Positions 8,801-17,800 of a stretch of DNA of 64,000 nt are shown piece by piece. The stretch lies in NCBI GenBank assembly GCA_034336665.1, contig CM067592.1:45723761-45787760 (forward strand), given 5' to 3'. How positions within the stretch are numbered: the first letter of the stretch is position 1; each line of letters starts with the position of its first letter. The notes under the pieces were generated by a model. That model was not told the origin of the DNA, searched no databases, and saw only the letters and a list, made by a program, of their open reading frames with translations. The position numbers and the translations under genes were made by a program. Origin of the DNA: Luscinia megarhynchos. Taxonomy: Eukaryota > Chordata > Aves > Passeriformes > Turdidae.

Positions 8801-11800
8801 GAACAAAGGATTATTTTGAAGGGCAGTTCATGCCATTTTTGTAAATGTGTTTTTCTTTATAACTGAAGTGAATTTTTGCTGCATATGAACAATGCTTGTT
8901 ATATTTTATATTGTCATTTAGATTTTTATTTCATGTCTGATAACTTGGGTGTACTATTCTGAAGAAAAATTCAGGCATGAGTTTTAAAGTAATTTCGTAA
9001 TAAAACACAGCTGAATTGTTGTATCTGTATTTTCAAGGTCTTAGAAGCTTTAAAATTTCAAGTTTTCATTGCCTGATATATTTTTTTTCCCCAAAGTATT
9101 CATCTTGCTATTGTTGTTTATATACAGAAAATCTGGTGTAACAGATCATTATGCTTTGGATGACAATCATGCACTTCATCTGGCAAGGAAAGTTGTAAGA
9201 AGTTTGAATCTCCAGAAGAAAGTAGATGTAAGTGTATAGAGTCTGAAAACACTGCATTGTTGAAATTAGGAATGCTTTTCTCTGCCTGATTGCTATAATA
9301 CTTGTTTTAGTGAATAGAACACATATTTTTTTCCATTAATTCACACATTCAAAAATGGAAGTTATGGTTCTTGTCCTTAAAGATTTCTCTGATGCTTCAG
9401 TTCTGCAATCCCAGTTATTCCCAGTAAAACTACTGTGATTAAATGCAAGAGTGAAGCAACTAGAAGAGTGCAAGAAGTCATAGAATTGCAATTTCAGATT
9501 CATCCTGTTTTGCAAGATACTTGATTTAATTTTAAATCCACATGATCATTTCCATGGATTTAAAATTAGATACCTGCTAAACCGTGTTTTTGAATAGACA
9601 TTTTCTGGGATTATTAAGAAGTTGAAAATCAAGGGGATAGGCCTAAATCCTGTTGTATTGGTTTAAGAATTCCATGTAGTAAATGGGATGGATAGCATAT
9701 GGGGGTGGAATTGTCTTATTTTATTTTAGTAGGAGATAGGAAAGGGTGAATAGAAGCTCGAGGAAGGCAAGATGTTGTATTCAATTGTGTGACAAAATCG
9801 TCATCCATTTTTCAGAATACTACCTGCCTTAGAAGGCACAGGGGCAAGTAAGAAAGGAGGACATGCCTAATTTTTTTATAACATGAAAGAAATGGAGCAC
9901 ATGTGGAGATATATGCAGTAGTAGGAAAAAGGTAACAGTAAGTGAGAAACTGTTACCAACCTCCAGTTTAGGAAACTCGATCTTTATGCAAGATAACAAG
10001 CCAGTACCGGCATTTTGATGTTATTGGGAAAGAGAAGTCTGTGTTCAAAGAACTTGACAACCTAATTGTTATTTCAGTGTGTAAGTCATAATGTGAGCTC
10101 ATGGTTCCTTTCATGGTTGTGTAAATTGTTTTGTTAAATTGCTGTAGGTGACTATAGAACCATCAGAAGAGCCTTTATTTCCAGCTGATGAAATATATGG
10201 AATAGTTGGTGACCAGCTAAAAAGAAATTTTGATGTCAAAGAGGTATGAGTATTAATGCAAGATCCACATGCCCATACATACATACACCCAATTTCTTGC
10301 AGGAAATCACTCTTTATATTGTCATAATTTATTTGGGTACTTATATCTGATTTGGGTAATTATTTCTTTATATTTTTGTCCAACAGATCCCTTGCAATAG
10401 CAGTGACTTGTTGAAAATATAATAGCTTTTGGTTATACTTTTAAGAAGGATGAGGAAGGATGAGAGATTGGTAACATTCTGAAAAAGCTGACAGAAATGG
10501 AAACTCCTAATTGGCAAAGCATTCTATAGGATGCCCTGGGATATGATGGCTTTCTTTTTCTGTCAGTCCTGTGAAAGATGAATTGTTTAAGTATTTATGG
10601 AGTATAAGCATCATAAATACTTAAACACCGAAGGATTGAGCTTGCTGCCAACTGCATACAAAGACTATTGTACTCTACTGCAGGTCTATTGTAATTATCT
10701 GCCTTGGAACCTTCGTCTGAACCAACATGCTTTCTCATATTTTGCACAAATCTCACATTCAGAACCTTTTTCACTCCTAGCCAAGAATGTATTTTAAGAG
10801 GAGTCTTAATATCTACTCGTGTTAAAATATTTGGCAGAAATTACTAGGATTTGCTTTGCATTAAGGGGGAAAAGAGATGAACAGTTTAATTGAGTTCATA
10901 CTTCACTGTCAAAAGTTGGAATAGTTCAGATTTATGTTCTTTTAAAGTTGAAATAAATGTCTTCTGGCAAATGTCTTGCTAGCAGTGGATCTGTATTTAT
11001 AAAAAATGGCTCCTTTGCATCACAGAGAAACCTTAAATCAGATCATTATTTTTTATGTCACAATCTTAAGCGAGCCAAAAAATAATCATATCTTTAAGAA
11101 AGTGATTTATGAGTGTATATGAGTTTTTCTTTACAAATGAGAGGTTATTGATTAATGTTTAATATAAGCAGAGTTTTTTCTTGAAATTCAACTCATTAGG
11201 GAAGATGTTGTTCCTGTGTAAATTGCATTTAGCTATTTGTTAGAACATTATTAATCTTGAAGTTCCATTTTTACAAACATGTAGATGAATCACACCTCTA
11301 AAAAACTAATGGGCTTTGTACAGCCATCCAAAGCTCCTTTGTGGTGGGCTGAATTATGTTCTATAAATGAAAAGGTTTTGGTTATATGTTATCATAGCAT
11401 TCCTTTCTAAACAACTTAAAACCTTGAAGGATTAGGAATTCTAATGTTATTTTTCCATTTTTTCCTAAGGTCATCGCTAGGATTGTAGATGGAAGTAGAT
11501 TTGATGAATTCAAAGCCTTGTATGGGGATACTTTAGTTACAGGTAAGTAGAAATACAATTATTCTCTATATGTTCCCCCCAGGTTTTATATAGTTGGATT
11601 TATTCTGGCTCAGCCACTGATATTTTTAATGACATTTATCTTCAGAAGAATAGCAATTTCTGCTATCAGGAGAAAGTGTTACCTTATATACTATGGAAAA
11701 ATAAATACATGTGGAAATTTATGAATTCAATCTCTCCCTTTAGGATTTGCAAGAATTTTGGTTACCCAGTAGGGAATTATTGGAAACAATGGAGTTCTTT

Positions 11801-14800: not shown

Positions 14801-17800
14801 CTTTCTAAACAACTTAAAACCTTGAAGGATTAGGAATTTAATGTTATTTTTCCATTTTTTCCTAAGGTCATCGCTAGGATTGTAGATGGAAGTAGATTTG
14901 ATGAATTCAAAGCCTTGTATGGGGATACTTTAGTTACAGGTAAGTAGAAATACAATTATTCTCTATATGTTCCCCCCAGGTTTTATAGTTGGATTTATTC
15001 TGGCTCAGCCACTGATATTTTTAATGACATTTATCTTCAGAAGAATAGCAATTTCTGTTATCAGGAGAAAGTGTTACCTTTATATACTATGGAAAAATAA
15101 ATACATGTGGAAATTTATGAATTCAATCTCTCTCCTTTAGGATTTGCAAGAATTTTTGGTTACCCAGTAGGAATTATTGGAAACAATGGAGTTCTTTTCT
15201 CAGAGTCCGCAAAAAAGGTAAATAGATAGATTATTAGCTTCTTTGCCATTGAGAAACAAAACTTCTGGTGGACCACTTGCTCTTGAGATTAGGAGCTTTT
15301 TTAAATAATGAGAGAGGACTGGCTCCATGTTTTTCATGTAAATGTGAGAAAGCTGCTCATAAGCTGTAAAAAAAATTGACCATATTTTAGAGACAGTGTT
15401 TGGTAGATTTTTCTGATGTGAAGAAGATAGGCCAACAGCAAGACAGCATTTGGATTTGTTTGAATGCAGCATAGTTGAAGTAGTATATTCTGAAACATAC
15501 ATCTGTTACAGGACAAGTCCATCCTGATTATCTCAAATACCCTGTTGGCCATTTCTAACTGCTAAACTCTGAAGTACTGTGGAAAATCATATCATTGTTT
15601 TTTGTAATAACTGGAAGATCTGAAACTTGGATTCCAGTGCTCAGTTCATTGGTTTACCAGAGTTTTAATTTTCATACTTTGCTGCAGCATCTCCTGGCCT
15701 AATAATGAGAATAATTATTGAATATCTGTGCAGTCTCTCAAAATCTGTGAGCTAAAATACCTGTTTTGTGAATGGCTGTGTGAAGGAATATTGTGATTTT
15801 ATTATAGTTGCCAGTGAATTACAGTTTGGACTTCAGGGAATGATGGTGATAAAGAGTATCTGGTTATTGCTAAGTGTTTACTTTGGCCTGTGTTGCTTGC
15901 TTTAGTTCTTCATTTTTGTCAAGAAGCAACTGTCAGTTGATTTTTTTAATAGCAATGATATATGCTAGTTATGTTCTAACAGTCTTCTTGAGCAAACAGT
16001 GAGGAAATCGGTATTGAAAATTTATAGAAAAAGGAAGCATTGATGAGGGAGGTGGAGGAAGGAAGTAATTTTATTGGATTCATTTCTGTTATAAAATAAT
16101 ACACAAAATTTAGTTTCATGTGCTGAAGGAATACTTCCAAATTGGAGCACTGCAGTAAATTACATTTTTTTCCTCTGACATTTGTTTTAACAGTTATTTT
16201 CAGGTAGAAAATAAGTCTTGCAGTATTTCTAATACTTTCATTATTTTTCTTACAATTTAGTGCTATAACTCTTTTTCCTAACAATGAAAATATAAAAGGC
16301 ATCTTAATTTCATGACTTTTACTGACATATAAGTACTGTAAAAGGAAAAGGAAAAAGTAAAAGAAAATTCACTTCTAGAGAAACCTTTGTCCATGATGTT
16401 GGTTCTATAGTCAACATACCTCAGCAATACTCCATTTTTTTCCCTTGCATTTTTGTAATGAGTTGTTGCAGTTTTTTTCCTATGATCGTCACTATGCTAT
16501 TCACATGTTTCTCTGAGGAAGATTATATTTAATTATTTTTCTCTCTTTCTTCTTTCTATAACCTTTGCAGGTTTTGTATAATGAAGAGGTTAGATGTTTT
16601 CTTAGTTGTGCTACATAACTTTGTTTTGTTTTCTTTTCTTTACCAGCAAGTGTATAAATAGAACTTCATAGATTTAGATTTCGTTCAAGTAGAAGCTTGG
16701 AATCCACTATTTGTAACTTTGCTAAGAAATTAGTCTTTTGTTAGTAAATAGGGAGAGGGCATCTGCCTTCAGGAGTGGGAGAAAAAGGTACAGCAACTGG
16801 CAGGGCCATGAGTAAATAATGTATATGGACCTTTCCCAGTTTTAGAGATTACTTTTCTTTTGTATAGAAAATGGGGAGATCTGTTTTTATGACTGACTGT
16901 CTTAATTTCTCTGACTGAGTCTTACCAAACGCAATGTCAGATGCCACACTGGTACTGTCCATGGTTTAATTGTATATTGGCTGAGTCACAGCAGTTGAGC
17001 TTTTCAATAATAGTAGTAATGCCTTTTAAGGATATTATTTCTGTTTTATCCATGGTTTCACATATTTTTGGAGATCTCTTATTTCTGCCGCAGTGAATGC
17101 ATGTTTTGCAATTAACTTTGGGTGAAGGAGTAGTAGTATAGCACTTCCTGATAGAAATACTGTGGTGGATGTCAGTGGAAGGATTTAGCACAGCCTTCAG
17201 AATGCTGGTAGTGATAGCTTCACTTGTCTAACTTTTAATGTCTTACTCTTTTCTTTTTTTTCCTCTCCATAGGGTACACATTTTATCCAGTTGTGTTGCC
17301 AGAGAAATATTCCCATTGTGTTTCTGCAGAATATTACAGGTGAGTAAGATCAAGTTTTTGAGGTTTCACTTTGTTGTAGACTTTGCTGTAAATTGTTGAG
17401 GCTGTATTCTAGCCTCTTGTATGCTTTGTAGTACCTATATCTGCAGCCTGTTTGGAAATCAGCCTGTCAGCAGGTGGTGAAGGCCTTGTCTTATGATTTG
17501 CTCCTCAGTTCTTTCTGCATGTGCTGTGAAGCACACAGTATGACGTATTGCAGAGTATTATAATATAAAGCTGGTGAGTCTTTTGTATTTCTTTAGGTTT
17601 CATGGTTGGCAGAGAATATGAGGCTGGAGGGATAGCAAAAGATGGTGCCAAGATGGTAACTGCTGTAGCTTGTGCCAATGTGCCTAAAATAACCGTCATT
17701 ATCGGTGGCTCTTATGGAGCTGGAAACTATGGGATGTGTGGAAGAGCATATAGGTGAGTGTTGCTTCAAATTATGACAGCAGACAGAAATAATTTAAGAG

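What the first reader, a model, noticed from the sequence alone, without database searches (positions are those of the whole stretch)
9358..16025. Two 3.3-kb copies meet exactly at a 100-N gap: probable false duplication
Copy 1 (9358-12659) ends at the last base before the gap, and copy 2 (12760-16025) begins at the first base after it. The left edge of copy 2 matches the interior of copy 1, and the right edge of copy 1 matches the interior of copy 2. A real tandem duplication would not have both breakpoints coincide with the gap; overlapping contig ends left unmerged would. The differences are mainly one-base indels in homopolymers, as expected from low-coverage long-read ends, though two haplotypes could also contribute.
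Basis: partly seen in the sequence, partly recalled or inferred. Interest (0 to 1): 0.75.

Follow-up and report, generated by a model that had tools for sequence, protein, structure and literature searches.

The report
Assembly overlap mistaken for tandem duplication
Two near-identical 3.3-kb stretches on either side of a sequence gap, probably on a bird's Z chromosome, are most likely one stretch that the assembly software wrote down twice, a well-known kind of assembly error.

Summary
Window 9358-12659 and 12760-16025 are one 3.3-kb sequence twice, separated by exactly 100 N; the match runs to within a base or two of both gap edges. With copy 1 as query, these are the only matches reported in the 1.093-Gb assembly. 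They are 94.7% identical, with 29 substitutions and 112 indel events, 86 of them single bases: the reverse of natural variation (about 10 SNPs per indel in chicken, PMC5785814) and closer to long-read error. Differences pile up at the two ends of the block, each the tip of one contig, and are fewer in the middle, where a 267-base identical run lies. The scaffold looks like a bird Z (DM-domain cluster). CHD1-like and NIPBL sequence has diverged second copies on C33 and C34, read as W, so the individual was probably female with one Z, and two haplotypes are unlikely. Verdict: a 'homotype' false duplication at a contig boundary, as PMC8081667 describes. Only reads can close that. No biological novelty.

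The parts
9358..12659 (+). Copy 1: right end of the left contig, overlapping the next contig by 3.3 kb
12660..12759 (.). Scaffold gap of exactly 100 N
12760..16025 (+). Copy 2: left end of the right contig, the same 3.3 kb again
10914..11180 (+). 267-base stretch of copy 1 with no difference from copy 2, near the middle of the overlap, far from both contig tips
12158..12659 (+). Tip of the left contig: about the last 15% of the overlap carries 22 indel events with extra bases in copy 1 against 3 with extra bases in copy 2, as expected of low-depth consensus (depth itself not seen)

Best explanation
It is a homotype false duplication. Two contigs of one molecule (a Z chromosome, one copy per cell in a female) overlap by about 3.3 kb. 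The assembler did not merge them, because the tip of each contig rests on few noisy long reads and the tips differ by about 4%. A scaffolder then placed the contigs next to each other with a default 100-N gap, so the overlap is written twice. Shown: the two copies, their edges, the indel-rich differences and their placement, no third match, and Z/W-type gene pairs. Inferred: low read depth, failure of overlap merging, the sex of the individual, and one true copy.
For: The match runs from the first base or two after the gap to the last base before it. No third match is reported in 1.093 Gb. Indels outnumber substitutions about 4:1 (112:29; 2.8-4.1:1 over six scoring schemes); chicken shows about 1 indel per 10 SNPs (PMC5785814, listing and passages), binomial p about 1e-89. 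PacBio indel errors are about 15 times as common as substitution errors, and extra redundancy brings the error rate to 1.3 and 2.5% (PMC4719071 section 8); two ends at about 2% each would give the 4.2% seen (141 events over 3359 columns). Differences are fewer in the middle: 110 in the outer two thirds, 31 in the middle third, p = 0.004; ten bins depart from uniform, p = 0.005. The middle holds a 267-base identical run; at a uniform rate any given stretch of that length would be free of differences with probability about 1e-5. In the last 15%, the tip of the left contig, 22 indels are extra in copy 1 and 3 in copy 2, against 43 and 44 elsewhere. [quoted passage not shown] PMC9516828 (abstract and passages) lists gaps between copies on one scaffold as a hallmark.
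Against: No reads were available, so depth and spanning reads were not tested. PMC8081667 says homotype duplications were about as long as the reads; 3.3 kb is short for a long read. The indel:substitution ratio of about 4:1 is below the 15:1 quoted for PacBio, so the platform is not identified. The chicken ratio is from variant calls across 28 birds, not from duplicated loci, and such calls may miss indels. No outgroup was available, so which copy is wrong at each site is inferred. Near the left edge, where copy 2 is the tip, the indels are not clearly one-sided (12 extra in copy 1, 7 in copy 2). The bins were chosen after a first look at the data.
Confidence: 0.89

Rival explanations
1. A true tandem duplication, perhaps with a unit longer than 3.3 kb, whose middle is lost in a gap of unknown length; contig tips add noise to two real, recent copies.
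For: 100 N may stand for any length; a gap inside a larger duplicated unit would put both match edges at the gap, as seen (geometry). Recent tandem copies do break assemblies (established knowledge).
Against: Unmerged real copies would be expected to have doubled depth and so good consensus at the tips; the differences instead look like read error and grow towards both tips. Old copies would be expected to differ mainly by substitutions (29 of 141 differences here). No further copy is reported for copy 1; the flanks were not searched, since and its repeat one search did not complete.
Confidence: 0.07
2. A heterotype false duplication: the two copies are the two haplotypes of a diploid region.
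For: Heterotype is the main kind of false duplication in PMC9516828 (abstract), except in the previous hummingbird assembly (passage). About 95% identity may stop an assembler from merging alleles (established knowledge).
Against: The scaffold looks like Z. The assembly also holds diverged CHD1-like and NIPBL copies on C33 and C34, read as W, so the individual was most likely female and hemizygous here; this is indirect. The SNP:indel ratio is inverted for real alleles, and there are identical stretches of 267, 174 and 145 bases.
Confidence: 0.04

Closest known systems
Homotype false duplication at a contig boundary (Vertebrate Genomes Project, PMC8081667, passages incl. Extended Data figure legend)
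   Same: Overlapping contig ends left in the scaffold as a tandem pair with a gap between; no second haplotype needed.
   Different: Shorter (3.3 kb) than the read or corrected-read length given there as typical; read depth and k-mer criteria not tested here.
Heterotype (haplotype) false duplication (PMC8081667, PMC9516828; passages)
   Same: A gap between two copies on one scaffold.
   Different: Needs two haplotypes; the locus is on a Z-type scaffold in an assembly with W-type gametologs, and the differences are mostly indels.

Membership tests
Homotype false duplication | Tandem copies on one scaffold with a gap between, at contig ends | tested here: met
Homotype false duplication | Differences are sequencing errors, not alleles | tested here: met
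   by pattern only, no reads: 112 indels to 29 substitutions, denser towards the contig tips
Homotype false duplication | Length about that of a read or corrected read | tested here: inconclusive
   3.3 kb; the read length of this assembly is unknown
Homotype false duplication | Read depth below haploid level; no true haplotype-specific k-mers | not testable with these tools
   no reads held
Homotype false duplication | More copies in the assembly than expected from read k-mers | not testable with these tools
   only the assembly side was seen: two copies, no third reported
Heterotype false duplication | Two haplotypes present at the locus | tested here: inconclusive
   points against: Z-type scaffold in an assembly with diverged CHD1-like and NIPBL second copies on C33 and C34; indirect, rests on the individual being ZW
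True tandem duplication | Reads hold both copies, or depth is doubled | not testable with these tools
   no reads held
True tandem duplication | At least one duplication breakpoint visible away from the gap | tested here: not met
   both edges of the match lie at the gap; does not exclude a longer unit hidden in the gap

The most novel reading that the evidence does not exclude
A real, recent tandem duplication of more than 3.3 kb lies between the left flank and the CART gene on this Z chromosome, with its junction lost in the gap.
Probability: 0.07. Interest if true: 0.12.

Novelty: already known. Interest (0 to 1): 0.07.

Why it matters

Tried and rejected
Haplotype explanation: tested through the Z/W state of the assembly and disfavoured. 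W gametolog as the source of one copy: disfavoured, since both copies sit on the Z-type scaffold, no third match is reported, and the Z/W pairs seen here align at about 65-77% in their longer pieces, with one 269-base piece at 91%, not 95% over 3.3 kb.

Other gaps for comparison: 20 of 20 neighbouring 10-kb stretches (100 kb on each side of the window) hold no N, so I could not measure how often gaps in this assembly have overlapping flanks.

Finding which copy is in error at each site needs a relative's sequence or dispersed relatives of the block; one search reported none. In the outer 15% at each end the tip copy has G or C where the inner copy has A or T in 12 of 15 A/T-to-G/C differences; 4 further substitutions there are A/T swaps and were left out (counted by hand; p = 0.035; noticed after seeing the data). 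I leave this unexplained; nanopore transitions are commoner than transversions (PMC8486125, passages), but I cannot name the platform.

The first alignment (MAFFT with a raised gap cost, 133 substitutions and 71 indel events) forced false substitutions and was replaced; one search shows that the later result does not hinge on gap costs in six schemes. A paper search for CARTPT, chromosome Z and chicken found 0 papers. Of 8 window ORFs outside the block scanned against Pfam, 1 had a match. Of the 3 ORFs of 80 aa or more that touch the block, 2 had no Pfam match and 1, at the right edge, had a sub-threshold one (zf-MIZ, 19.4 bits against a cut-off of 33.5), which I take as chance.

Full report
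Observation. The window holds one run of N, 12660-12759, exactly 100 bases. Copy 1 (9358-12659) and copy 2 (12760-16025) match at 94.7% identity; the local match runs 9360-12659 against 12761-16025, so copy 2 starts matching at the second base after the gap and copy 1 matches to the last base before it. Searched against the whole assembly (1.093 Gb, 1235 contigs), copy 1 finds these two places only; the tool scores the best candidates and skips very common words. The window is C36:45,723,761-45,787,760.

The differences. The global alignment has 29 substitutions (19 transitions) and 112 indel events, 86 of them single bases; 65 events are extra sequence in copy 1 and 47 in copy 2. Six scoring schemes give 29-38 substitutions and 104-123 indel events. 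In chicken 13.93 million SNPs stand against 1.36 million indels (PMC5785814, passages incl. the abstract); the observed ratio departs from that with p about 1e-89. Long-read errors go the other way: about 15 indels per substitution for PacBio, with redundancy lowering the error rate to 1.3 and 2.5% (PMC4719071 section 8). The 4:1 seen here is between the two but far nearer to read error.

Placement. If each contig gets worse towards its tip, copy 2 is bad at the left of the block and copy 1 at the right, and the sum should be U-shaped. It is: 110 differences fall in the outer thirds and 31 in the middle third (expected 94 and 47; p = 0.004). The longest identical run, 267 bases, lies at 10914-11180, near the middle. 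In the last 15% of the block 22 indels are extra in copy 1 and 3 in copy 2; elsewhere the figures are 43 and 44 (Fisher p = 0.0005). At the left tip the asymmetry is weak (12 and 7). The bins were chosen after a first look at the data, so the p values are a guide only.

Chromosome and sex. C36 is 74.4 Mb long and carries three of the six DM-domain matches reported for the genome, within 94 kb at 25.4-25.5 Mb, the arrangement of DMRT1-DMRT3-DMRT2, which is on Z in birds (recalled). The CHD1-like family PF13907 matches C36, C33 and C14, once each. C36 and C33 share aligned sequence well beyond the exon, in pieces of 65-73% identity, while C14 shares only about 190 bases at the exon, as expected of CHD1Z, CHD1W and the autosomal CHD2 (names recalled). 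NIPBL (PF12830) matches C36 four times and C34 four times, and their surroundings, which I take to be mostly introns, align at about 69-77% in the longer pieces, with one 269-base piece at 91%. C33 is 4.83 Mb long. I read C33 and C34 as W pieces, so the individual was most likely a female with one Z. The block, with no third match, would then be present once per cell, and two haplotypes cannot be the source. This fails if the assembly mixes individuals, if C33 and C34 are not W, or if the locus lies in a pseudo-autosomal region.

With a gap of unknown length, a larger true tandem duplication broken inside its unit would also put both edges of the visible match at the gap. The geometry alone does not decide. 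The kind and placement of the differences do most of the work, and reads would decide.

Known kind. [quoted passage not shown] This case fits on position and error pattern; length is short, and depth and k-mers could not be tested.

Surroundings. 20 of 20 stretches of 10 kb beside the window hold no gap. I recognised no gene in the block: 3 ORFs of 80 aa or more touch it, and none has a Pfam match over its cut-off (one sub-threshold zf-MIZ match at the right edge). Rfam at gathering thresholds gives matches only at 50698-50778, and no tRNA is found.

Noticed in passing
window 50698-50778, both strands: mir-31 microRNA precursor (RF00661) on the minus strand, 81.3 bits; the plus strand also passes the cut-off of 51 at 53.7 bits. 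Whether other copies exist in the genome did not complete.
   Followed up: partly
window 34430-34972, plus strand: Part of the CART neuropeptide gene (PF06373, E 1.2e-7, residues 9-39 of this frame) in a GC- and CpG-rich stretch, about 90 bases before a GGGAA array of about 66 copies at 34640-34969.
   Followed up: partly
window 34002-34182 and 41981-42107: Short GC-rich tandem arrays with units of 64 and 39 bases.
   Followed up: no
window 9519-9787 and 12241-12646 against the other copy: The contig-tip copy tends to have G or C where the inner copy has A or T (12 of 15 such differences in the outer 15% at each end, hand count, test); may hint at the sequencing platform.
   Followed up: partly
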